A stretch of 64,000 bases of DNA from Prevotellamassilia timonensis (GTDB lineage Bacteria; Bacteroidota; Bacteroidia; Bacteroidales; Bacteroidaceae). Shown here one piece after another: positions 2,143 to 45,330 of the stretch. A program made the position numbers and the translations under genes. The stretch covers positions 1,034,974 through 1,098,973 of the forward strand of contig NZ_LT629845.1 of the NCBI RefSeq assembly GCF_900106785.1. Direction: 5' to 3'. Position 1 is the first letter of the stretch, and every line of letters begins with the position of its first letter. Under the pieces are notes generated by a model that saw only the letters and a program-made list of their open reading frames with translations, was not told where the DNA came from and did not search any database.

Positions 2143-3780
2143 ATGACACGCCCCATACCACACATCATACGCTACTTGCTCACACAGCTTAAAGGATATA
2201 AATTGCAAGCGACACTCAACACTATAGTTGGCGTGCTGCTCGTTTTCCTTGACCTTGCATTCGTGTGGGCCACAAAATTGGCAGTTGACGCAGCTACACA
2301 TCAAACACAAGCATGCACACTTAACCAGGCATTAGTGCTTATTGGTACTATCATGCTACTACGCATACTGACAAGCCTTTCGTCACGCTGGATCAGCGCT
2401 ATACTGGGAGTAAAAGCCCAAAACCGCATGCGCCAACACATATTTACCAAATTGTTGCAAGGGCAATGGGCCACGCTCAAAACATTTCACACAGGCAACC
2501 TTACAAACAGATTGGAGCGCGACGTCAACGACGTGGTAAGTTTTGCCACTGAGAGCATACCTTCGTTTATCACCACATTCACTCAATTTGTCGGCGCATT
2601 TTTCTTTCTATTCTTTATGGATAGCACACTCGCTATCATTATCGTATGCGTAGTGCCATTCTTCATCATCAGTAGCAAACTCTATTTCAAAAGAATGCGC
2701 AACCTTACTCACGAGGCTCGCAACGAGGAAAGCTGCATTCAATCTATACTTCAAGAAACGCTACAACATGTATTGATTGTCAAGACATTACAACGTGTCG
2801 ACTTTTTCACAACAAAACTTTCGTCACAACAATCACGCCTGCACGCAACAATACTCAAACGTACCAAACTTTCAACCATTTCATCAAGTCTGCTCAACCT
2901 GGGTTTTGCCACCGGTTACTTTGTCACATTCGCATGGGGCGCAACAAACTTGTCAAAAGGGCTCATAACCTATGGCGCCATGCTTGCCTTCATACAATTA
3001 GTTGGACAGATACAAGGCCCCGTACGCAATCTTTCAAAATTCATTCCTGTATTCATCGCCTCGTTCACCGCGGCAGAGAGATTGATGGAATTAGAAGAAC
3101 TGCCCCAAGAAGAGCAGTGTCCGCCACTCAAGCTGACACCACCACTGCAACTGAACCTAACTGATGTAAAATTTCAATACACGCACAAATCGCGACTGAT
3201 ATTCAATCATTTTAATTACAAATTTCCCGCGGGCAGCGTCACTGCCATCGTGGGAGAAACTGGAGCAGGCAAGACAACACTAATTCGCTTGTTACTCTCA
3301 CTCGTTACACCCATCGAGGGCAACATTGTCATCACCGACTCACAAGGGAACAACTACCCTATGATGCCCCACATGCGTACAAATTTTGCGTACGTGCCGC
3401 AAGGCAACACACTCTTTTCCGGAACCATTCGCAGTAACTTGCTACAAGGCAACCCCTCAGCCACCGACGAGGGACTGAAGCAAGCACTGCACATTGCTGC
3501 AGCCGACTTCGTGTTCAAAAAAGCTGACGGACTCGACACCATCTGTGGTGAAACTGGCGACGGCCTCTCCGAAGGCCAGGCCCAACGCATTGCAATTGCC
3601 CGAGCATTGCTGTCCGATGGCAATATATTCATCTTTGACGAAGCCACTTCATCACTCGACCCCACCACCGAGGAGATTGTGCTGCAACGCATCATCACGC
3701 ACTACCCACACCGCACATTGATTTTCATCACACACCGGCCACAAGTGCTCAAGTATGCCACTCAAAAATTAGAGTTGTAA
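2143..3780 (+). CDS. ABC transporter, fused membrane and ATPase domains (exporter type)
   Basis: A 545-residue half-transporter: an N-terminal six-helix membrane domain (about residues 1-310) followed by a nucleotide-binding domain. Visible motifs are Walker A GETGAGKT at residues 371-378, the Q-loop region FAYVPQGN, ABC signature LSEGQAQRIAIARAL, Walker B IFIFDEATSSLD and the H-loop ITHR. This is the MsbA/MDR-type exporter layout and it should act as a homodimer in the inner membrane. The substrate cannot be read from sequence. The downstream tamB gene starts only 17 bases after the stop, so the two are probably cotranscribed, suggesting an envelope role (inference). Confidence 0.9.
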   Translation: MTRPIPHIIRYLLTQLKGYKLQATLNTIVGVLLVFLDLAFVWATKLAVDAATHQTQACTLNQALVLIGTIMLLRILTSLSSRWISAILGVKAQNRMRQHIFTKLLQGQWATLKTFHTGNLTNRLERDVNDVVSFATESIPSFITTFTQFVGAFFFLFFMDSTLAIIIVCVVPFFIISSKLYFKRMRNLTHEARNEESCIQSILQETLQHVLIVKTLQRVDFFTTKLSSQQSRLHATILKRTKLSTISSSLLNLGFATGYFVTFAWGATNLSKGLITYGAMLAFIQLVGQIQGPVRNLSKFIPVFIASFTAAERLMELEELPQEEQCPPLKLTPPLQLNLTDVKFQYTHKSRLIFNHFNYKFPAGSVTAIVGETGAGKTTLIRLLLSLVTPIEGNIVITDSQGNNYPMMPHMRTNFAYVPQGNTLFSGTIRSNLLQGNPSATDEGLKQALHIAAADFVFKKADGLDTICGETGDGLSEGQAQRIAIARALLSDGNIFIFDEATSSLDPTTEEIVLQRIITHYPHRTLIFITHRPQVLKYATQKLEL

Positions 3781-3797
3781 TAACACCACCCACCACT

Positions 3798-6700
3798 TTG
3801 AAGTCCTTAAAAATTCGCAACATATTACGCACGCTCGTATGCACCATTCTTGGCGCATACATTTTGTTGTTGGGCATACTTAACTATGCTCCAACCAACA
3901 AAATGTTGTCCAACTATGTTGCACAAGAGCTAAGTCATAAGATAGGCAGCAAGGTAAGCATTGATAATATACAAATAGGGCTATTCAATCGCTTAATAAT
4001 CAACAATATTTGCATAAGCGACAGACAACACGAAATATTATTGAAAGCCCACCTCGCTACCACAAAAATAGAATTGCGTTCCCTCTTCAAGCAACAACTG
4101 TCACTGCGCACGGTGTCGTTGCTTGATGCCGATGTCAACCTTTACCAACAAAAAGCTGACAGCGCAGCAAACTACCAATTTCTGATAGATGCCTTTGCAA
4201 GCAAAGACCACAAACCAAAATCGGGCATCAACCTGCGTATCAACTCCATTATTCTACGCCGTGTCAACATTCGTTACGACAAGCGTTTCTTACCACATAC
4301 TCCCCACAAGTTCAACCCCTCGCATATAGGTCTGGCTGACATCAACGCCAACATCAGCCTCAAGAATATTACTACCAAGCAACTTGACCTGCGTGTACGT
4401 GCGCTATCGTTTAAGGAGCAATCAGGTTTATGTCTGAACGATATGCACTTCAAATTCTCAGCAACCCCTACTGCCGCCGACATCGAAGATTTCAGCCTCG
4501 ATATGCCCCATACACACATACGCCAGGGTTCACTCCTGGCAACCTACAACATTCAACGTGGCATAGACCAACTCCCCCACACATTGCGCATAGGCGCGAC
4601 ACTCAACAAAATACAAGTTTCGACCGCTGACATTCGACCGCTGTTAGGCAACACGCCAAAAGGCAAAGACCTTACTCTGCGCATTTCTACAACATTACTG
4701 CTAACTCCTGGCAAGTTGCAGCTCAACCAACTTACCATCACAGACAAGCAACATGACAGCCGTTTGAAAGCTGATATCACGTTGAAATATGCTCCCAAAC
4801 GTGTACAAGAACTTTACCTCACGCTCAGCCAATGCCACGTGAGCAAAGCACTTACATCCAATCTGCTGTCGTGGGTTAAGCTTGACAACAAAAGTCAAAA
4901 CATCATAAAGGCGGTCGGAGACATTGACATTAAAGGGAATGCAGCATACCAGGCAGGTGGAACAACTCAAACAACCCTTGACGTGCAAACTGCCATTGGG
5001 CATCTTACAGCCAGCGCAAGCATCAAAGGACAACATGCCAGTTCCCACATCAACGTCAAATCATTCGCTCTCGACAAGTTGCTCGCCAACAAGTCGCTGC
5101 CGACGCAAATAGATGCAATGGCCGACATACGAGCCACCATTGTTGCAAACAAGCGTCTTGAGAGCGTTAGCATAAAGCTACAAGCACCGGCATTTACGTG
5201 GAACAATTATAAATTCCGCAACATAGAAATCGAAGCAGACCACACACCACGAACCACCCAATTCGACATAAACAGTAACGACCCCAACGCAAAATTCAAT
5301 GCCTTAGCCAAGCTTTCGTTGGTTGGCAAGCAAATTGTTGGTGGCAACGCTGATATAAACATACAAAACCTTCACCTTGCCAATCTTGGCCTCAAAAGTA
5401 CCCCTTTGCACCAAGCCCAAGTCAGCGCACACATCAAAGCCGACCTGGATAAATGGCAAAAAGGGGCACTGCCACATGGCACGCTGCAGATTAACAACCT
5501 CGACATACAAAATGGGCCACGAGGCAACTACAGCCTCAACCAATTTAATGCTTCCATCACTTCCGACAACACTAATCGGCAAACTCTGAAAATACAAAGC
5601 GATTTTGCCGACGCTTACATTGAAGGTAACATGTCATTAGAGCGCATCAAACAAAGTGTGACCGATGTGCTCAACCGCAGTTTGCCCGGCCTTGTCGACA
5701 AAGCACAACCATACCCGCCCCTCACCCCACACGATCAATGGCTAATCAACGCCAAGCTTAAAGATGCCGAAGCACTCTACAAATTGGCAAATATAAAATT
5801 TACTACAGACGGCCCACTACACATTCATGGCACCTTTGCCCCCATGGGCCGTACATCTATTGTAGCCTTCACCAACCAGTTAAACGTATCCTCGCAAGCG
5901 TTCATACGTCCAAGCATCTATCTGTCGGGCCAAGGCCAAGACTATCATTGCCTAATTCAGACACAAAAAGCCATTGCCAATAGCAACTACCGTATTGCAG
6001 CCAATCTCACGACCCGTCATGGCGCGCTACACACACAGCTAAGTTGGAGCAACCAAGAGGACAAGGACCAATACTACGGATCAGTTGAAAGCACTACCGA
6101 ATTTGTGCCTTCACGTAATGGCGTGAACCTGAACATGGATATCAGTCCCACGCAATTCGCCCTGTCCGACACAATTTGGCATATTGCTTCCGGACATCTG
6201 TCATACATCAACAAGCGCCTTGCCATGTCAGGCATACAACTCAGCCACGCCAGCCAATCACTCACGATTGATGGCATGATAGCCCCCGGCCAGAGCGACT
6301 CAATTGTAGCCAGCCTCAACGGCATTGACATTGACTACATACTCAATCTCATAAATTTTGACGCTGTATCGTTTGGCGGCAGAGCTACCGGGCAGGCCAT
6401 CTTCACACAAAAGGAACACCAACCCCAATTCCATGCCAATCTGACCATTCCCCATTTCACGTTCAACAACGGGCTTATGGGGTATGCCAACATACATGCC
6501 AATTGGAACAAGGGGGAAAACCGCATCAACATCGATGCAGACATGAAACTGCCCCACACCCCCAACTATGGCACACAAGTGCATGGCTACGTATCGCTGG
6601 CCGAAAAAGGGCTCAGCCTGAACATAACCCCCCATCACACCGATTTGGCATTTCTCAACCGCTACATAGACGGCATCTTTGGCGATTTCAAAGGCGACGC

Positions 6701-9887: not shown

Positions 9888-10307
9888 ATGGAAGATTGGA
9901 AACAAAAATTAGCTGCACTCACAGGCAATCACACCACACAAATTGATGCCACACCAACACAGGCATCTCCCACACCCCCAAAACGCAAGCAACGTACAGG
10001 AGTTGTATATTCTACCAATCCGCAATATAGCTACAACGATGCACACGACTCAGAGCCCTCAACACTGCCCCCGCAACAACAAAAGTTGCGTATCAGCATG
10101 GAACGTGCTGGCCGCGGCGGAAAAACTGTAACCATTGTGCGGGGCTTTGTTGGTAATGAAGCCGATATGCTTGCACTCTGCAAACTATTGAAACAGCAAT
10201 GTGGCATAGGAGGCAGTGCAAAACAAGGCGACATCATATTACAAGGGGACCACCGCACGCAAGTGTGCGAAAAATTGAAAAGCCTTGGTTACTCGCAAAC
10301 AAAATAA
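9888..10307 (+). CDS. SUI1/eIF1-domain translation factor (YciH-like)
   Basis: A 139-residue protein. The N-terminal 65 residues are polar and probably disordered; the C-terminal part (about 68-139) is a SUI1 domain with the diagnostic GRGGKTVTIVRGF stretch and the CGIGGSAKQGDIILQGDHR segment. Family members resemble eukaryotic eIF1 and bacterial YciH, which affects start-site fidelity on the small ribosomal subunit; the role in Bacteroidota is not settled. It has its own promoter and is followed by a repeat-rich non-coding region, so it appears monocistronic. Confidence 0.88.
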   Translation: MEDWKQKLAALTGNHTTQIDATPTQASPTPPKRKQRTGVVYSTNPQYSYNDAHDSEPSTLPPQQQKLRISMERAGRGGKTVTIVRGFVGNEADMLALCKLLKQQCGIGGSAKQGDIILQGDHRTQVCEKLKSLGYSQTK

Positions 10308-10371: not shown

Positions 10372-10796
10372 TTTTGTCTGCACTCTGCACTTTTGCATCG
10401 AATGAATTGATAATCAACAGAGAAAAGCGTGCAGACGCCTCTACATTTTACATACACTGCCGTCAGCACTCGTTGCTGGCGGCAGTGCTTTTTACGCCAT
10501 AGGGAGAGCGTTTATCGGGTATAGGGGCGGCAGTGCTTTTTACGCCATAGGGAGAGCGTTTATCGGGTATAGGGAGGGCCGATTTTCTGTTGCTCCAACT
10601 ATTTTTTCGCTCTCGCTATGGCGCTTAACACTGCCAGTACACCGCATACTTCACCTGCACATGTATGACAGTGTAGATAGTGCAAACAAAAGTGCAACGT
10701 GCAGATGGTAGTGTATACACAAACCTGGTTTATATACACTACGTAACAATATGAATATCAACAAGATACAGACAAAAGTGCAGAGTGCAGACAAAA
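10372..10796. repeat. 425-bp non-coding element with 24-bp perfect terminal inverted repeats (copy 1)
   Basis: Positions 10372-10395 and 10773-10796 are exact inverted copies of each other (24 bp, containing GTCTGCACTCTGCACTTTTG). Inside the left end, TTGATAATCAACAG lies at 10407-10420 and GTGCAGAC at 10429-10436. The element at 32698-33066 has the same left-end order and nearly the same spacing, so this is a repeated, probably mobilisable or protein-binding element and not random sequence. It contains a 48-bp tandem repeat and no plausible ORF. No target duplication could be assigned by eye. Confidence 0.7.
10478..10573. repeat. Two exact tandem copies of a 48-bp unit, with an inverted degenerate third copy
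   Basis: Copy 1 is 10478-10525 and copy 2 is 10526-10573; each contains GGCAGTGCTTTTTACGCCAT and GGGAGAGCGTTTATCGGG. A degenerate inverted copy of the first half lies at 10608-10635, so the RNA could fold into a long hairpin. Just before it, 10455-10487 forms a 14-bp stem with one G-U pair followed by CTTTTTA, resembling an intrinsic terminator. Confidence 0.8.
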
Positions 10797-11158: not shown

Positions 11159-12289
11159 ATGAAAGAAAAAGTTTCTACTCAACGTATCGTGTTTCTCGAT
11201 CTGATTAAGGTGATTGCCATTTTTCTAATGGTGGCCAACCATTGTGTAGACAACGTAACACCTATGGAAAGAGCCGAACCTTGGTATAATCTGTGGGGCA
11301 GTGTGTACAACTCATTCACGCGTCCTGCAATACCGCTTTTCGTGATGGTGACAGGCATTCTTCTGCTACCCACCCGTATGGCAATGGGCGAGTTCTATAA
11401 AAAGAAGATATCCCGATTGGTGACACCATTCCTTGTGTGGTCTGTATTATACAATCTCTTTCCTTGGTTTACGGGAGTAATGGGATGTGAACCAAGTTCG
11501 ATTAATCTGTTTTTCAAATGGGCAGAACCTTCACAAACTTTTAGCGATGCATTAAAAAACATCTGCATGATTCCCTTTAATTTCTCAGCATTCGCTGTGC
11601 AGATGTGGTATGTCTATATGCTTATTGGCATCTATCTTTATCTGCCTATCTTTTCAGCCTGGGTGGAGAAGTCTGACAAGAAATCGCAACGTATTTTTCT
11701 TAGCATATGGATGGTTTCGCTCTTCGTTCCTTATCTCAGAAATTTTCTTACACAAAACTTATGGGGTGAATGTTCATGGAATGAATTCGGACTTTTCTAC
11801 TACTTTGCAGGGTTTAGTGGCTATCTGCTCTTGGGATATCATTTGGTGAATTACCCATTACAGTTCTCTAAAATGAAGAAATACTTGTTAGCACTCGTGG
11901 CTTTTGCTATTGGATATGGTGTAACGATGATTGGATTTAAGGAAACAACGGCAGTTCCGGGACAAAGCGAGGAGATGGTCGAACTGTTCTTCACGTTCTG
12001 CAGTCCAAATGTGGCTTTGATGACTTTTGCTATCTTCATAGTCTGTCAGAACGCAACTTTCAGCAATGCAAAGTTAAACGGTTTTCTGATCAAATTCTCC
12101 ATCTGTACATTCGGAATTTGGATGTGTCACTACTTTTTTGTAGGACCTATTTATCTGCTTGTGCGGTCGTTGGACGCTCCTGTATTGCTCAAGGTTTTTA
12201 TCGAGAATATATTGGTATTGCTCTTGTCATTCGTGTTCGTATTGATTGTACGTAGCACTGGTAAATGGGGAAAGATAATTATGGGGTAA
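11159..12289 (+). CDS. Acyltransferase-3 family membrane protein (OafA/YrhL-like)
   Basis: A 376-residue polytopic membrane protein starting with the family pattern VFLDLIKVIAIFLMVANHCV (about residues 11-30), where the histidine of the first helix is the conserved catalytic-type residue, followed by the FTRPAIPLFVMVTGILLL segment. About ten hydrophobic helices follow. Members O-acetylate or otherwise acylate surface polysaccharides or peptidoglycan; the substrate here is unknown. The gene is AT-richer than its neighbours and sits between an IS1380 remnant and an IS66-like remnant, so recent acquisition is likely. No TAnnTTTG box was seen close upstream. Confidence 0.86.
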   Translation: MKEKVSTQRIVFLDLIKVIAIFLMVANHCVDNVTPMERAEPWYNLWGSVYNSFTRPAIPLFVMVTGILLLPTRMAMGEFYKKKISRLVTPFLVWSVLYNLFPWFTGVMGCEPSSINLFFKWAEPSQTFSDALKNICMIPFNFSAFAVQMWYVYMLIGIYLYLPIFSAWVEKSDKKSQRIFLSIWMVSLFVPYLRNFLTQNLWGECSWNEFGLFYYFAGFSGYLLLGYHLVNYPLQFSKMKKYLLALVAFAIGYGVTMIGFKETTAVPGQSEEMVELFFTFCSPNVALMTFAIFIVCQNATFSNAKLNGFLIKFSICTFGIWMCHYFFVGPIYLLVRSLDAPVLLKVFIENILVLLLSFVFVLIVRSTGKWGKIIMG

Positions 12290-30949: not shown

Positions 30950-32665
30950 ATGAAAAAGGTTTTCATCGCAACACTACTCTTTACAACTACATACGGCCAC
31001 ATGGCACAAGCCGCAAACGACCTTCCCACAAAGGAGGCATACAAGGCCATGCTCAACCTGTTTACTTACAACGCCGAAGGCAAGCTCATCAAGTCGGACG
31101 TAGCATTTTACGTTGACAACAATGGCAGCGCGGTATGTGCTTACAGCACACTGAAAGATGCAACCCGCGCCGAAGTGGTTGATGCTAAAGGCAAAAAATA
31201 CAACGTCAGCCGCATTTTGGGAGCCAATGCCACCACCGACCTTGTCAAATTCCGCGTCGACGGTGTAAAGGACAATGCCTACTATCACATTGTCACCATG
31301 CCGGCCACAACGGGACAACAGTTAACGCTGCAGAGCTATACTACCAACAAAAAGGCCATCATGCCATTTGCCACAGTTGACAGTACCGAGGCATTTAACG
31401 CCCTGGCATATTACCATATTAGCGCTGGCAACGACAGTCACAACTATGGGTGTCCACTAATTGACCAAGATGGCTCACTGGTTGGCGTGGTGCAACAAAA
31501 TGTAGAGAAAAACGCGACCAAAGCCTGCGCCATAGACGCACGTTTTATCAATGCACTCAACATTACTGCCGCATCGGCATTCAACAGCGATTTGGCAGCA
31601 TTAAAAATTCCCCGTGCCATACCTGACGACAAGCAGGCAGCACTCAACTATCTGTTCATGCTGCCTACGACCGACTCTCTGAACTGCACAACAGCCTATG
31701 CCGATTTTATAGCACAATACCCCGACATGCCCGATGGCTACGTACAACGTGCACAATATTGGGCCGGCAAGAAACAACTCGAAAAGGCCAACAACGACTA
31801 TGCCACAGCCTTGTCAAAGAGTACAACCTGCACAGACACCACAGCACAAACCGAAGATGCTGTACACTATGCCATAAGCAGCAGCATCTACCGCAATGTC
31901 ATGGCTGCAGGAAAAGACTCCACACTTGGCCATGACTGGAATTTAGCACGTGCAGAGCATGAGGCCGATTTGGCATACAAAGCCAAGCCTATGGCGCTAT
32001 ACATGGTGCAAAAGGGCAACTGCCAATATGCCGCCCGCAACTACCAAGGCGCATATACCAGTTTCATCACAGCATGCCATGATGCCGCGTTTGCCACCAG
32101 CGAAACCTACTTTTCGGCAGCGCGTTCGCTCGAGATGGCCAAGGGCGACAACCAACAGGTAATAGCCCTGCTCGACAGTTGCATCAACCGCATTCCGCAA
32201 AACAACAATACACAATACGCGCAGTTCTACTTGGAACGTTCACAACGATTATTGAAGGCCGAAAGATATCGCGATGCTGTAGCCGACTATAACCAATACG
32301 AGCAAATGATCGGCCCGCGCAATTTGACAGACCGATTTTACGACCTGCGCTCGCAGGCCGAAGAAAAGGCACACATGTATCAGCAAGCGCTCGACGACTT
32401 ACACACGGCCATAGCCATTGCGGAGCAGCCACTCCCCTACCAGATTGACGAAGCCGCATTGCTGCTCAACGTGGGTGAATACCAACGTGCCATTGACGCA
32501 GCACAAAAGGTGTTGACACAATGGGGCGACAATGCCGACTGTTATAAAATTATAGGTGTGGCACACGGCGAGCTCAAACACAAAGCCGAAGCATTGAAAT
32601 ACCTGCAACGCGCTAAAGATTTGGGTGATAAAAGTGTAGACAACTTTATTGAGAAATACAAATGA
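30950..32665 (+). CDS. Secreted TPR protein with a degenerate trypsin-like domain
   Basis: A 571-residue protein with a signal peptide (MKKVFIATLLFTTTYGHMAQ, cleavage near AQAA). Residues about 25-210 follow the layout of a trypsin-like protease, but the catalytic histidine site (normally NYHV) reads CAYSTL and the serine site (normally GNSGGPL) reads HNYGCPL; only the aspartate of TTDLVKF is kept, so it should be inactive. Residues about 225-571 are helical TPR-type repeats ending in a clear TPR (DCYKIIGVAHGELKHKAEAL). It probably works as a binding scaffold in the periplasm or at the surface. Its position behind recN is typical in Bacteroidales. Confidence 0.78.
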   Translation: MKKVFIATLLFTTTYGHMAQAANDLPTKEAYKAMLNLFTYNAEGKLIKSDVAFYVDNNGSAVCAYSTLKDATRAEVVDAKGKKYNVSRILGANATTDLVKFRVDGVKDNAYYHIVTMPATTGQQLTLQSYTTNKKAIMPFATVDSTEAFNALAYYHISAGNDSHNYGCPLIDQDGSLVGVVQQNVEKNATKACAIDARFINALNITAASAFNSDLAALKIPRAIPDDKQAALNYLFMLPTTDSLNCTTAYADFIAQYPDMPDGYVQRAQYWAGKKQLEKANNDYATALSKSTTCTDTTAQTEDAVHYAISSSIYRNVMAAGKDSTLGHDWNLARAEHEADLAYKAKPMALYMVQKGNCQYAARNYQGAYTSFITACHDAAFATSETYFSAARSLEMAKGDNQQVIALLDSCINRIPQNNNTQYAQFYLERSQRLLKAERYRDAVADYNQYEQMIGPRNLTDRFYDLRSQAEEKAHMYQQALDDLHTAIAIAEQPLPYQIDEAALLLNVGEYQRAIDAAQKVLTQWGDNADCYKIIGVAHGELKHKAEALKYLQRAKDLGDKSVDNFIEKYK

Positions 32666-32697
32666 TTTTGCCCCTACAATTTTAATTTCGTCAAATT

Positions 32698-33066
32698 GTC
32701 TACATCCTACACTATCTGTACATAACAACTTGATAACCAACAGTTTTATGAGTGTAGACACTTAACAAAACTGTCTGCACTCCTGTCTACACTTGCACAA
32801 GCAAGTAGTTTGCACAGCATGCACAGGCAGTGAAAACAGTTTCTCCGACTGGCGTGACGCCCTGCCGTAACTGAAAATTCTACCTCCCGTAACCGCATTC
32901 ACAAGTTCCCTGCACAGAAATGCAGACTTGAAAAGGCCCAAGTACAAGCACTTACACCTGTGCCACGAGTGCAACTTAAGTGTAGAGTGTTTTGCACGTT
33001 ACCTACACATCTTAACCGCCTAATAATCAGCGGCTTACACATAATTAGTGCAGAGTGTAGACAAAA
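32698..33066. repeat. About 370-bp non-coding element, copy 2 of the 10372-10796 family
   Basis: The left end GTCTACATCCTACACT (32698-32713) is followed by TTGATAACCAACAG (32730-32743) and AGTGTAGAC (32751-32759), the same order and spacing as in copy 1. The right end AGTGCAGAGTGTAGACAAAA (33047-33066) matches the copy 1 right end at 10777-10796 with one difference. A further GTCTGCACTCCTGTCTACACT lies at 32773-32793. The element occupies most of the 537-base gap between the TPR and porin genes; short ORFs inside are not convincing. Confidence 0.65.
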
Positions 33067-33202: not shown

Positions 33203-35413
33203 ATGACACAACATCACATACACATAATAATCCTTGTTGTCTCTACCCTGTTTTGCCTTGGCAGCAAAGCACAGAATATTCACACCATCAACCCCTACCT
33301 CAATGCGGAGGAGCGCAATGGCGGTTTTTCAAGCGACAGTGTGGAGACTACCGGTGTGCCCGAAGGCCTCTACGCATGGCACATCAGTCCACGCTTTGGC
33401 GACATCATTCCTGCCACCTATGATACCATTCCGCACCGTTTTCAAAACGAGAACCAGACGATGGGTGTAACAGGGCATTACAATTTCACTGGCAACCTGG
33501 GCGCACCGCGTATCAGCCATTTCTTCAACGAGCAGGGGGTAAACATGCAAAGCGCACCATTCATCTTCAAAACGCCCTACGACTATTTTCTCAAAAGCAC
33601 GGACGCGCTTTTGTTCACCAACACCAAGTCGCCATTCACCACACTTACTTACCATTCATGTGGCAACAAGCAAAATGGCGAAGACCGCCTAAAGGCCATG
33701 TTCGCCGTTAATGCTGGCAAAAAGTTGGGCTTGGGCTTTAATGCCGACTACCTCTATGGTCGAGGCTACTACGAAGGGCAATCTACAGCCGACTTCGACG
33801 GTATGGTTTATGCCTCATACCGCAGCGACAACTACCAGATGCATGCTTACGTGCAACACACTTATCTGAAAACACGCGAAAATGGCGGCATCGAGAACGA
33901 TGACTACGTCAACCGCCCCGAAATATTTCCTACACGCTACGGCACAGGCGACATGCCCATCAATCTTGCTAAGGCATGGAACAAGATTGGAGGCAACAAG
34001 GTGTTTTTGACACACCGGTACAGCTTGGGATTTCATCGTTTTCGCGATGCAAAAGGCCAGATTGTGCCCGAGGCTGTCGTAAAGCAAATGGCCGCCGCAG
34101 CAGCTGCCACACAGACCAAGGACACAACCATGGTCAGCACAATAGCCCAGCCGCGTGTTCCGAAAGACAGAGCAGAGAACGTGCCAGTACACACCGACAA
34201 CGACACGCTCAAAATCACAAGCGAATTTGTGCCAGTAAGCAGTTTTATTCACACACTCTGCGTTAACGATAACACACGCCGCTTCATTTCGAACGAGGCA
34301 AACAACAGCAATTCACCAGGCTATTTCAACGATTTTTATCTGCCGGGCGACTCTGCACTTGACCGCACGCACCATTTGGGCATTGAAAACACCTTTGCAG
34401 TGGAATTGCACGAGGGCATGAATCGCTGGATGAAGATGGGACTCCGCCTGTTTGGCAAACACGAATTGGCCAAATTCGATTTCAAATCTCCATCTTTTAC
34501 CGTTGCCGACAAGCGCAAATTTGTAGAAAACTACTTTACTGTTGGTGCCCAAATACTGTCAACACAGAGTAAAATCATAACTTACAACGTGTTGGGTGAG
34601 TTGCGTACAACTGGCAGCGACTGGGGCGAATTTAATGTGGAAGGCAATGCCAAGCTGAATATCCCCATCAAGAAAGACTCACTGCAATTTGTGGTTAACG
34701 GCTTTGTACGCAACGAGCGCCCATCGTTTTACTACCGCCACTACATGGCCCGTAATGCATGGTGGGATAATGACAATTTGAACAAAATGTTCCATGCCCG
34801 CGTCAACGCCAGCCTACGCTATAAGGACACTCAAATAGGTGTGTCGCTTGAGAACATTCAAAACTATACCTACTTTGAGGAGACCCTGACGCCATTCGAA
34901 AACAGCGACAGCTACACCTCATATCGTCACGCCATAGGTGTGGCACAAGCCAGCAAGAATGTACAATTACTGGGCATCACGCTCAACCAAAATTTTCATT
35001 GGGGCATATTTAATTGGGAGAACGAACTTGCCTACCAGGTGAGCAGCAACAAAGCCGTTTACCCTGTACCGGCATTCTCTGCATATAGCAATGTCTACCT
35101 TTTGTTTCACATTGCCAAAGTGCTGCGCACCGAGATCGGTGCCGACGTGCGTTACTTTACGCGCTACGCTGCACCTGCCTACTCGCCCATCATCGGGCAA
35201 TTTGCTGTGCAAGACGCGCAATACGCCACCCGCATTGGCAACTACCCTATAATCAATGCATACGCTAATTTCCATCTTAAGCGCACACGCTTTTATTTGA
35301 TGGCATCACACGTCAACTATTCGTCAGGTGCAGGACGCCCATTCCTTGTGCCACACTACCCGCTCAACCGCTTGACTATACACTTTGGCGTGTCGTGGAA
35401 TTTTGTGAATTAG
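33203..35413 (+). CDS. Putative outer-membrane porin (beta-barrel)
   Basis: About 736 residues from the ATG at 33203 (MTQHHIHIIILVVSTLFCLG, signal peptide cleaved near SKAQ). The mature protein is rich in alternating aromatic/polar strands (GNLGAPRISHFFNEQG, LGLGFNADYLYGRGYYEGQ, YRHAIGVAQASKNVQLLGI) and ends in an aromatic beta-strand (LTIHFGVSWNFVN), as expected for an outer-membrane barrel. It matches the large Bacteroidota putative porin family found near moxR/bat genes. A TTG start at 33164 is in frame but would spoil the signal peptide. Substrate unknown. Confidence 0.82.
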   Translation: MTQHHIHIIILVVSTLFCLGSKAQNIHTINPYLNAEERNGGFSSDSVETTGVPEGLYAWHISPRFGDIIPATYDTIPHRFQNENQTMGVTGHYNFTGNLGAPRISHFFNEQGVNMQSAPFIFKTPYDYFLKSTDALLFTNTKSPFTTLTYHSCGNKQNGEDRLKAMFAVNAGKKLGLGFNADYLYGRGYYEGQSTADFDGMVYASYRSDNYQMHAYVQHTYLKTRENGGIENDDYVNRPEIFPTRYGTGDMPINLAKAWNKIGGNKVFLTHRYSLGFHRFRDAKGQIVPEAVVKQMAAAAAATQTKDTTMVSTIAQPRVPKDRAENVPVHTDNDTLKITSEFVPVSSFIHTLCVNDNTRRFISNEANNSNSPGYFNDFYLPGDSALDRTHHLGIENTFAVELHEGMNRWMKMGLRLFGKHELAKFDFKSPSFTVADKRKFVENYFTVGAQILSTQSKIITYNVLGELRTTGSDWGEFNVEGNAKLNIPIKKDSLQFVVNGFVRNERPSFYYRHYMARNAWWDNDNLNKMFHARVNASLRYKDTQIGVSLENIQNYTYFEETLTPFENSDSYTSYRHAIGVAQASKNVQLLGITLNQNFHWGIFNWENELAYQVSSNKAVYPVPAFSAYSNVYLLFHIAKVLRTEIGADVRYFTRYAAPAYSPIIGQFAVQDAQYATRIGNYPIINAYANFHLKRTRFYLMASHVNYSSGAGRPFLVPHYPLNRLTIHFGVSWNFVN

Positions 35414-44886: not shown

Positions 44887-44915
44887 GGAAACGTGTCTTT
44901 GCATAAAAACAAAAA

Positions 44916-45330
44916 GAATCAGACGGCCTATAAGCCGGGTTCTGTGCCCATGCACCCTAAAAAGATGCACAGCGCCTGCCATTTATCCGCGCACTTTGTT
45001 GCCAAAGTGCTCTATCGTTCTACCCTCCAACGCGCATTTAATACTGTTTAGGCGTTAAATGCTCGGACGAGCAGCCCTCTTACGCTGGTATACATGAACT
45101 TTCAACTTCTGACGTGCACAGCACACATGTCACCATGTGCCTGGTGGGCTCTTACCCCGCCTTCTCACCCTTACCCTACTGTTATAGTGACAGCGGGCGG
45201 TTATTTTCTTCTGCACTGGTTCACCCTCACGGATGACTTCCAATTAAGAAGCAGAATGCTCTACGTTGCCCGGACTTTCCTCCTGCATCTCAAAAAACGA
45301 ATGCACACGGCAAGCCGGCCGACTGATTCT
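44916..45330 (-). ncRNA. rnpB: RNase P RNA (bacterial type A)
   Basis: On the minus strand the transcript begins GAATCAGTCGGCC and ends GGCCGTCTGATTC, which pair perfectly except one position as helix P1. It contains the universal segment GAGGAAAGTCCGGGC near its 5' end and ACAGAACCCGGCTTATAGG at its 3' end. Length of about 415 nt is normal. The RNA is the catalytic subunit that removes 5' leaders from tRNA precursors. A TTTTTGTTTTT run follows the 3' end. The whole 670-base gap between the PAP2 gene and the plug protein gene holds this gene, its promoter and one repeat element. Confidence 0.96.

What the first reader, a model, noticed from the sequence alone, without database searches (positions are those of the whole stretch)
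10372..10796. A repeated 370-425 bp non-coding element with conserved internal layout
Two intergenic elements, 10372-10796 and 32698-33066, share (i) a left end of type GTCTRCAYYCTRCACT, (ii) TTGATAAYCAACAG 32-35 bases in, (iii) GTGYAGAC 54-57 bases in, and (iv) a right end AGTGCAGAGTGYAGACAAAA. In copy 1 the ends are a perfect 24-bp inverted repeat. No protein is encoded. Such order and spacing point to a specific recogniser: a trans-acting transposase, a REP-type system, a nucleoid protein or an extrachromosomal replication protein. I know no named family for it.
Basis: partly seen in the sequence, partly recalled or inferred. Interest (0 to 1): 0.72.

Follow-up and report, generated by a model that had tools for sequence, protein, structure and literature searches.

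The report
Spaced mini-origin-like sites for a helicase
Two non-coding stretches in this window belong to a family of about 50 copies, none found within 15 kb of another, and because three of the copies sit in front of a gene for a VapE-type helicase they are likely the DNA landing sites of a selfish or tamed mini-replicator that is predicted to spread through the chromosome while keeping its distance.

Summary
My list for the host genome has 52 such elements (family A). Each is two inverted end modules, 326-738 bp end to end in 37 measured: paired half-sites GTGYAGAC, a double inverted IHF-type site (TAA-N4-YTGATWATCAR-N4-TTA), an inverted half-site, around a hairpin core. Two sister families share the layout with other half-sites: B (AGTGTAAGATG, about 56) and D (GTGYARGYA, about 12).

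The gene partner was found. Three A copies lie upstream of a VapE-like SF3 helicase gene; B copies lie upstream of a related VapE gene or its remnants. Each VapE type goes with its own half-site. The modelled VapE-A fold resembles the helicase PriRep1; related island helicases bind repeats beside their genes.

Two properties were unexpected. The elements avoid one another (A: 0 of 48 gaps under 15 kb, 14.2 expected; also across families). A and D keep to different contig groups.

At copy 2, 4 of 5 genus relatives with the same gene pair have 39-72 bp there and no element. I read the window copies as gene-less origin-like sites of a VapE mini-replicator. Binding, replication and movement are inferred; no target duplication was found.

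The parts
10373..10795 (.). Element copy 1 (family A, solo, no gene), between a SUI1-type gene (9888-10307) and an acyltransferase gene (11159-12289)
   Evidence: Ends scored by model R1 (genome C17:1045346-1045768); sequence; neighbours by Pfam
10372..10395 (+). Left 24-bp arm of copy 1, outer plus inner half-site TGTCTGCACTCTGCACT
   Evidence: perfect inverted repeat with 10773-10796
10373..10436 (+). Left end module of copy 1 (half-sites, palindrome 10407-10417, inverted half-site GTGCAGAC 10429-10436)
   Evidence: 49.0 bits
10730..10795 (-). Right end module of copy 1 (palindrome variant TGAATATCA 10752-10760)
   Evidence: 54.1 bits
10773..10796 (-). Right 24-bp arm of copy 1
10481..10576 (.). 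48-bp direct duplication (46 of 48 bases identical) inside the core of copy 1: 10481-10528 and 10529-10576
10544..10622 (.). Core hairpin of copy 1: arms GCCATAGGGAGAGCG (10544-10558) and its inverted copy with one mismatch (10608-10622)
   Evidence: single-strand DNA fold of the whole element z = -10.7, to which the 24-bp arms contribute
32695..33065 (.). Element copy 2 (family A, solo, no gene), between a TPR/trypsin-like gene (30950-32665) and the next gene (ATG at 33203)
   Evidence: C17:1067668-1068038; synteny
32695..32761 (+). Left end module of copy 2 (palindrome TTGATAACCAA 32730-32740, inverted half-site GTGTAGAC 32752-32759; IHF consensus on the - strand 32723-32735)
   Evidence: (45.8 bits)
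32999..33065 (-). Right end module of copy 2 (IHF consensus AATCAGCGGCTTA 33025-33037)
   Evidence: (53.0 bits)
32842..32895 (.). Core region of copy 2 (..CTGAAAATTCTACCTCCCGTAACC..), similar to cores of other copies
   Evidence: matches to this part alone elsewhere in the genome

Best explanation
The two window elements are gene-less copies of a family in which three copies stand in front of a VapE-like SF3 helicase gene, and the element is predicted to be that helicase's origin-like landing site. Shown: the copies, the shared layout, the pairing of each VapE type with its own half-site, deletion derivatives of the B-type gene copy, mutual avoidance along the chromosome, and the absence of copy 2 in relatives. 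Inferred: the VapE hexamer binds the half-sites with its C-terminal (DUF3874, likely winged-helix) domain; an IHF/HU-family protein bends the central palindrome so that the two half-sites of a module come together; the helicase opens the DNA and starts local copying; copies made this way are re-inserted by a step I could not identify. Gene-less copies would be served in trans by the VapE of another locus. The spacing would come either from an immunity-like block around bound copies or from loss of copies that land too close, as two helicase-loading sites a few kb apart may be harmful.
For: Copies: 73 near-exact ends, control 0; 151 modules at E<=0.1 with model R1, B and D modules included. Layout: 103 module candidates aligned. 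TTR stands exactly 4 nt beyond the WATCAR of the palindrome on both sides, 45 and 37 of 91, against at most 8 of 91 at any other gap, the IHF consensus spacing (passage of PMC10380432). The palindrome is kept without covariation in 91 modules, which points to a DNA site rather than an RNA stem. Gene partner: of 30 VapE places fetched (of 33 matches), 25 (23 loci, two seen twice) have 5-7 B half-sites within 1.5 kb on one side and 0-1 A; the 3 VapE-A copies have 5-7 A and 0 B; 2 have neither. The VapE-A units are 93.8-95.8% identical over 1.44-1.49 kb. Three B copies share one internal deletion breakpoint. VapE: Pfam VapE-like and DUF3874; PDB by sequence profile 7pds only, E 7e-11; AlphaFold2 model of a 97%-identical homologue, mean pLDDT 81; best Foldseek matches the six chains of 7pds, PriRep1 with dsDNA, E 3.8e-16 to 4.3e-14, TM 0.54-0.60. 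SaPI Rep helicases recognise iterons beside their gene with the C-terminal domain (passages of PMC7581432). Same layout with other half-sites upstream of VapE homologues in another genus member (L237) and in Bacteroides finegoldii (L313). In 3 of 4 annotated Bacteroides records a divergent HU-family gene lies 0.3-0.4 kb from the VapE gene (not in 104). No gene recurs beside 46 solo A loci beyond pairs. Empty site: 4 of 5 relatives. Avoidance.
Against: No binding or replication was measured. The 49 solo A elements (of 52) carry no VapE remnant in the fetched stretches, so the A link rests on 3 copies. The strict module was found upstream of only 2 of 33 VapE genes outside this genome, and the rule was set after I had seen both. 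SaPI origins lie downstream of rep, here the element is upstream. The route of insertion is unknown: no target duplication in 37 elements (k=5 to 9), exact boundaries unresolved, no integrase or transposase linked. The fold match has an rmsd near 7 A, so it speaks for the domains and not for details. The Walker A motif reads QGLRKST, unusual in my judgement, although K and S are invariant. Non-motif positions of A modules agree only 35.5% pairwise while motif positions agree 79%; dead copies would not keep them, so copies may be maintained for a host function instead. A and D keep to different contig groups, which a freely trans-acting helicase does not predict.
Confidence: 0.5

Rival explanations
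1. The elements are MITE-like ends of a DDE transposon (Tn7/Mu/Tn5053 type as I recall them: ends TGT...ACA with several transposase sites and an IHF site) with target immunity; VapE is a passenger gene.
For: Ends read TGTCTRCACTC...GAGTGYAGACA; several inward half-sites per end with an IHF-type site between; strong mutual exclusion is what target immunity gives; B deletion derivatives; empty sites.
Against: No gene recurs beside the 46 solo A loci except in pairs of loci, and the gene that does accompany complete copies is VapE. No target duplication of 5-9 bp in 37 copies. The flanks keep a weak consensus well outside TGT, so TGT may not be the boundary. I did not search the whole genome for DDE transposases.
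Confidence: 0.2
2. The elements are host sites that organise the chromosome (or its replication), kept in place by selection at tens-of-kb spacing, each region with its own half-site allele; VapE is the domesticated reader.
For: Motif positions kept while the rest is highly diverged; spacing non-random within and across families; A and D partition by contig group, Fisher p = 1.9e-10.
Against: Copy 2 is absent from 4 of 5 relatives with the same gene pair, and the A site is found in quantity in 1 of 301 family genomes, so the array is recent or turns over fast; B copies include many broken gene copies, as selfish elements do.
Confidence: 0.2
3. REP/BIME-type repeats moved by a RAYT (TnpA_REP) transposase, with hairpins as the recognised feature.
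For: GC-rich hairpin cores; mostly intergenic, 33 of 37 centres outside ORFs over 150 aa; inverted pairs.
Against: The conserved parts are the end modules, not the hairpin; the conserved palindrome does not covary; elements are 326-738 bp; no gene recurs beside solo copies beyond pairs. A RAYT gene elsewhere in the genome was not searched for.
Confidence: 0.04
4. Chance similarity of two AT-rich intergenic regions.
For: None found.
Against: 73 near-exact ends against 0 in the backwards control.
Confidence: 0.01

Closest known systems
SaPI / SCCmec Rep helicase with iteron origin (SaPI Rep, Cch2; PriRep1 by structure)
   Same: Initiator-type helicase fold (best PDB match 7pds); short repeats next to the helicase gene; C-terminal domain is the DNA reader in the known cases (passages of PMC7581432).
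   Different: Here about 120 origin-like elements of three specificities, most without an intact gene, are strewn over one genome; the element is upstream of the gene, not downstream; no primase or integrase in the repeated unit; the site holds a double inverted IHF-type motif; replication not shown.
MITEs (non-autonomous, internally deleted transposons)
   Same: Inverted ends, no gene, many copies, deletion derivatives of a gene-bearing copy (family B), empty sites in relatives.
   Different: The linked gene is a helicase, not a transposase; no target duplication; copies avoid one another over 8-16 kb.
BrickBuilt MITE of Porphyromonas gingivalis (PMC4596501, passages seen)
   Same: Large intergenic repeat of a Bacteroidales species, found in one species and its sister, with internal repeats.
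   Different: 12-bp ends like those of ISPg1 (IS5 family), 23-nt tandem repeats, 18-19 copies per strain; neither 'helicase' nor 'VirE' occurs in its main text.
IHF binding site (WATCAANNNNTTR)
   Same: Same core, same 4-nt gap, same TTR, on both strands of the module centre.
   Different: Two sites overlap head to head, which leaves room for one dimer in either direction; that IHF/HU of this host binds is untested.
Bacteroides BT4734/VapE genes near an HU-family gene
   Same: VapE-like plus DUF3874 domains; L313 has the same module upstream with half-site CTGACAATA.
   Different: Often with a BT4734 N-terminal domain; HU gene nearby in 3 of 4 annotated records; whether such elements are dispersed there was not examined.

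Membership tests
MITE | Inverted terminal repeats | tested here: met
MITE | Target-site duplication | tested here: not met
   37 elements, direct repeats of 5-9 bp no more frequent than with flanks shuffled; boundaries are uncertain
MITE | Ends shared with a transposase-bearing parent | tested here: not met
   the gene-bearing relatives carry VapE; no other gene recurs beside 46 solo A loci beyond pairs
SaPI-type Rep/iteron replication module | Initiator-helicase fold related to SaPI Rep | tested here: met
   (7pds first; SaPI5 primase-helicase 7ola at rank 28)
SaPI-type Rep/iteron replication module | Specific short repeats beside the helicase gene | tested here: met
   (5-7 half-sites of one type at 28 of 30 VapE places)
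SaPI-type Rep/iteron replication module | Helicase binds the repeats and starts replication there | not testable with these tools
   needs protein and DNA
SaPI-type Rep/iteron replication module | Part of an island with integrase and phage-packaging genes | tested here: not met
   homology between gene-bearing B copies covers the non-coding element and the VapE gene only; the neighbours were read by eye, without domain searches
IHF site | WATCAR-N4-TTR | tested here: met
   43 of 91 modules hold a full match on at least one side, 4 on both; in the other 48 the match is partial
REP/RAYT | Conserved hairpin as the recognised unit, RAYT gene | tested here: inconclusive
   conserved palindrome does not covary; a RAYT gene was not searched for
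Tn7/Mu-like transposon | DDE transposase plus TGT..ACA ends | tested here: inconclusive
   end letters fit; no recurrent gene beside solo copies beyond pairs, no duplication; no genome-wide search for transposases
Rfam RNA family | Match to a described RNA | tested here: not met
   only RNase P at 44915-45326 reaches a gathering score in the window

The most novel reading that the evidence does not exclude
One bacterial genome is studded, on average every 29 kb, with some 120 mini-origins of three mutually avoiding specificities, each read by its own VapE-type initiator helicase together with an IHF/HU bender; two sibling specificities (A and D) have split the genome between them, so that each region or replicon is marked by its own helicase-site alphabet. 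This would be a class of mobile element that spreads by helicase-driven local replication rather than by a transposase, and that obeys a spacing rule.
Probability: 0.25. Interest if true: 0.9.

Novelty: new variant of a known kind. Interest (0 to 1): 0.74.

Why it matters
VapE-like genes are very common (4060 homologues scored, of a capped list of candidates), and my literature searches found no function for them as single genes in this group of bacteria. Their cognate site, proposed here, gives a direct handle: a short DNA that can be tested for binding, unwinding and replication. The mutual avoidance of three families over 8-16 kb raises a testable question: is there target immunity without a transposase, or is the spacing of helicase-loading sites itself under selection?

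Tried and rejected
A family on one replicon only: my first view (A only on C14, C16 and C17, nothing elsewhere) was wrong as stated; model R1 showed related elements on C11, C13 and C15, but these carry the D half-site, so the claim became a partition of A and D. Whether the contig groups are two replicons or two regions of one is undecided.

Copy L100 (C17:910626-914288, 3.7 kb) looked like a full-length autonomous copy; it is an A element split by a phage remnant with terminase-like genes (read by eye).

RNA fold: rejected, since the conserved palindrome does not covary. Target duplications: none. A recurrent gene beside solo A copies: none; of 246 ORFs at 46 loci the two largest groups (8 and 3 loci) are, as I read them, fortuitous ORFs of the elements themselves and the next six groups shown span 2 loci each. 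Viral origin of the A site: 15 viral-contig stretches with one hit each; one of them (L261) and the only contig with a B element (L270) are the same public contig, whose fetched parts are identical to this genome itself. The 28 hits in other genomes are single and scattered, as chance gives. VapE-B in viral contigs: no relative confirmed.

The strict cross-species module test was mostly negative: 2 of 33 (60 shuffles: 0.12 on average, at most 1). Two more (L215, L240) look alike by eye only. L230, L236 and L237 have 22-bp tandem repeats upstream of VapE, which may be another kind of iteron.

Literature: of ten searches of an open-access library, seven bear on novelty; their listings showed nothing on VapE with such sites, on DUF3874 (0 papers) or on such a repeat in Prevotella; subscription papers are not held. 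The other three were. Papers seen: passages of PMC4596501, PMC7581432 and PMC10380432; listings only for the rest. That PriRep1 is a staphylococcal island protein, and the Tn7/Mu/REP comparisons, are recalled.

Lists behind one search were compiled by hand; degenerate copies near C14:95.8k and C12:49.5k and a single end at C1:918 were left out, and two hybrids were assigned (C16:123k to B, C13:137k to D). The null is uniform placement on each contig. The D pattern is loose and also matches some B-like ends (C2:51k, C13:137k, C16:123k). In one search the guess of gene direction was unreliable, so I counted sites on either side.

Full report
Observation. In the whole host genome (3,475,353 bases, 17 contigs; the window is C17:1034974-1098973) the end GTGYAGAGTGYAGACAAA occurs 73 times with up to one mismatch, against 0 for the backwards control. 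Ends come in inverted pairs: 37 elements with both ends clear are 326-738 bp long, median 422; 33 of the 37 centres lie outside ORFs over 150 aa; flanking genes are tandem at 26, divergent at 7 and convergent at 4.

Anatomy. 103 module candidates were aligned. Each reads, from the outside in: a weak C-rich and T-rich flank, an outer and an inner half-site (TGTCTRCACTC-TRCACT), about 15 nt, the palindrome YTGATWATCAR at +34/+35 (94 of 103), about 12 nt, and an inverted half-site GTGTAGACA. Between the modules lie a variable number of further half-sites, none to more than ten, and a GC-rich hairpin core. The palindrome is kept letter by letter with no compensating changes in 91 modules, so it is a DNA site. 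TTR stands exactly 4 nt beyond WATCAR on both sides (45 and 37 of 91, at most 8 of 91 at any other gap): two IHF-consensus sites head to head. 43 of 91 modules hold a complete WATCARNNNNTTR on at least one side, 4 on both.

Sister families. Three matches led to family B: half-site AGTGTAAGATG, 172 exact (control 1), 60 inverted pairs 48 bp apart (control 0), two pairs typically 283 bp apart per element; longer matches to one B copy are 76-88% identical. Family D has ends AGTGYARGRTGYARGYA: 24 exact hits, of which 20 are on C11, C13 and C15, 3 on C16 and 1 on C2; some of these are B/D hybrids. Exact A ends: 53 of 53 on C14, C16 and C17. Counting elements, A is 51 in and 1 out of that group, D is 1 in and 11 out (Fisher p = 1.9e-10). 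Whether these groups are two replicons or two regions is open; one member of the genus is held as a single 2.9-Mb contig.

The gene. B elements lie just upstream of a 459-aa gene with a VapE-like domain (PF05272) and a DUF3874 match below the cut-off. The genome has 33 matches to it: three full-length copies (the query and two at 94 and 96%), one 3'-truncated copy at 93%, four full-length relatives at 67-72%, and remnants. Homology between the gene-bearing B copies runs from the non-coding element to one base after the stop codon, about 1.9 kb. Three B copies share one internal deletion. Three of the four relatives (C17:167574, C17:760999, C16:680592) have a complete A element upstream, followed by GTGTACAANTTGTACAC and the gene; their gene parts are 93.8-95.8% identical over 1.44-1.49 kb. 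The fourth, on the D contig C11, has an open 477-aa gene with a D-like element. Of 30 VapE places fetched, 25 (23 loci) have 5-7 B half-sites nearby and 0-1 A; 3 have 5-7 A and 0 B; 2 have neither. The 49 solo A elements show no VapE remnant (tblastn on 67 stretches gave only the C11 gene and one B copy), and no other gene recurs beside 46 of them beyond pairs of loci.

What the protein is. A 97%-identical homologue (P0001) scores for VapE-like domain and DUF3874. The sequence profile finds one PDB entry, 7pds, 'Similar to D. nodosus vapE', E 7e-11. The AlphaFold2 model (mean pLDDT 81; residues 42-92 under 50) ends in an HHEHHHEE segment that I read as a winged helix. Foldseek's first six matches are the chains of 7pds, PriRep1 with dsDNA (E 3.8e-16 to 4.3e-14, TM 0.54-0.60, rmsd about 7 A, 15-16% identity); NrS-1 and AsfvPrimPol chains follow, and the SaPI5 primase-helicase is at rank 28. 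In the SaPI and SCCmec cases the helicase binds short repeats next to its gene, with the C-terminal domain (passages of PMC7581432).

Other species. In 58 genomes of the genus 22 have VapE matches (own included), others at 24-46% identity; in the 11 neighbourhoods listed I saw, by eye, mostly solo genes between host-like genes. The exact layout with another half-site lies upstream of VapE in L237 (CTACACAA/TTGTGTAG) and in Bacteroides finegoldii L313 (TTGTCAGC/GCTGACAA), 2 of 33 loci tested against 0.12 expected; 31 of 33 did not pass, and the rule was set after both had been seen. In 3 of 4 annotated Bacteroides records a divergent HU-family gene lies 0.3-0.4 kb from VapE (not in 104). The A site itself is private: 80 exact hits here, a single hit in one other of 301 family genomes sampled.

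Mobility. At copy 2 the flanking TPR/trypsin gene was found in 52 of 58 genus genomes (own included); 19 other loci were fetched, and 5 have the downstream gene within the 1.5 kb taken; 4 of these 5 have 39-72 bp between the genes and no element (537 bp here); the fifth has 534 bp of unrelated sequence. So the element is a recent arrival there, or was lost several times. No target duplication was found in 37 copies.

Spacing. With 52 A, 12 D and 56 B elements against 20,000 uniform placements: A, 48 gaps, smallest 15.7 kb, 0 under 15 kb (14.2 expected), no random set as extreme; A+B+D, 111 gaps, smallest 7.7 kb, 17 under 15 kb (47.3 expected), no random set as extreme; B to nearest A/D, 46 of 56 testable, 3 within 10 kb (18.1 expected), no random set as extreme. 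B alone: smallest gap 9.2 kb (P 0.0001), but gap variation like random (P 0.69). D alone is too few to tell (P 0.10). It is an exclusion of short distances, not a regular lattice: large gaps exist. I know of no bias of gene layout that would act at this scale, but the null is simple.

Selection or turnover. In 65 modules, motif columns agree 79% pairwise and the other 20 columns 35.5%; the two ends of one element agree more (48.5%, 24 elements) than ends of different elements (36%), which suggests conversion between the ends. Kept motifs in otherwise diverged copies mean either that each copy is used in place or that only working lineages spread.

Verdict. Observation confirmed and extended. 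Best reading: solo origin-like sites of a VapE mini-replicator (0.5). Rivals: immunity-bearing transposon ends (0.2), host chromosome sites (0.2). The steps after 'the sites go with VapE' are inference.

Noticed in passing
L100 (G000:C17:908000-917000), 2626-6288: An A element is split by a 3.3-kb phage remnant (terminase-like genes, by eye); a direct repeat of about 30 bp (ACATACGAAGTGTRYACRYCTTATAT) flanks the remnant near the palindrome, as if a phage used the element as its attachment site.
   Followed up: partly
G000, beside many B elements (e.g. L152, L158, L162): Another large inverted repeat, CTAATGGGGGCGACGCGTCYCGCGTCGGG with an AAAGGCTCACAGACAG hairpin, plus tandem AAACGCWASCACT units and a CTCCGCGTTAGCGG repeat: the genome looks unusually rich in interspersed non-coding repeats.
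   Followed up: no
window 10481-10576: 48-bp direct duplication (46 of 48 identical) inside the core of copy 1.
   Followed up: no
G000:C16:698269-698694 and 713993-714451: Two A elements 15.7 kb apart with the same right flank (TATTCTTTTAAGTGCACAAT), possibly a duplication; they set the smallest A gap.
   Followed up: partly
L230, L236, L237 (other genus members): VapE homologues with 22-bp tandem repeats upstream (ACATATGTGGGAAA, CAATTGTGG, GGAGCGCACC units).
   Followed up: partly
L308, L309, L310 (Bacteroides): VapE/BT4734 genes near a divergent HU-family gene (L308: HU-HIG domain, Pfam); a possible dedicated bender for the VapE site.
   Followed up: partly
L171 (G000:C13:48000-60000): ISL3-type transposase gene (Pfam) in two near-identical copies next to a B element.
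   Followed up: no
IMGVR_UViG_2788500337_000006: A public 'viral' contig whose fetched parts are identical to C17:~914-942 kb of this genome and hold A and B element parts.
   Followed up: yes
window 44915-45326 (-): Bacterial RNase P RNA, class A.
   Followed up: no
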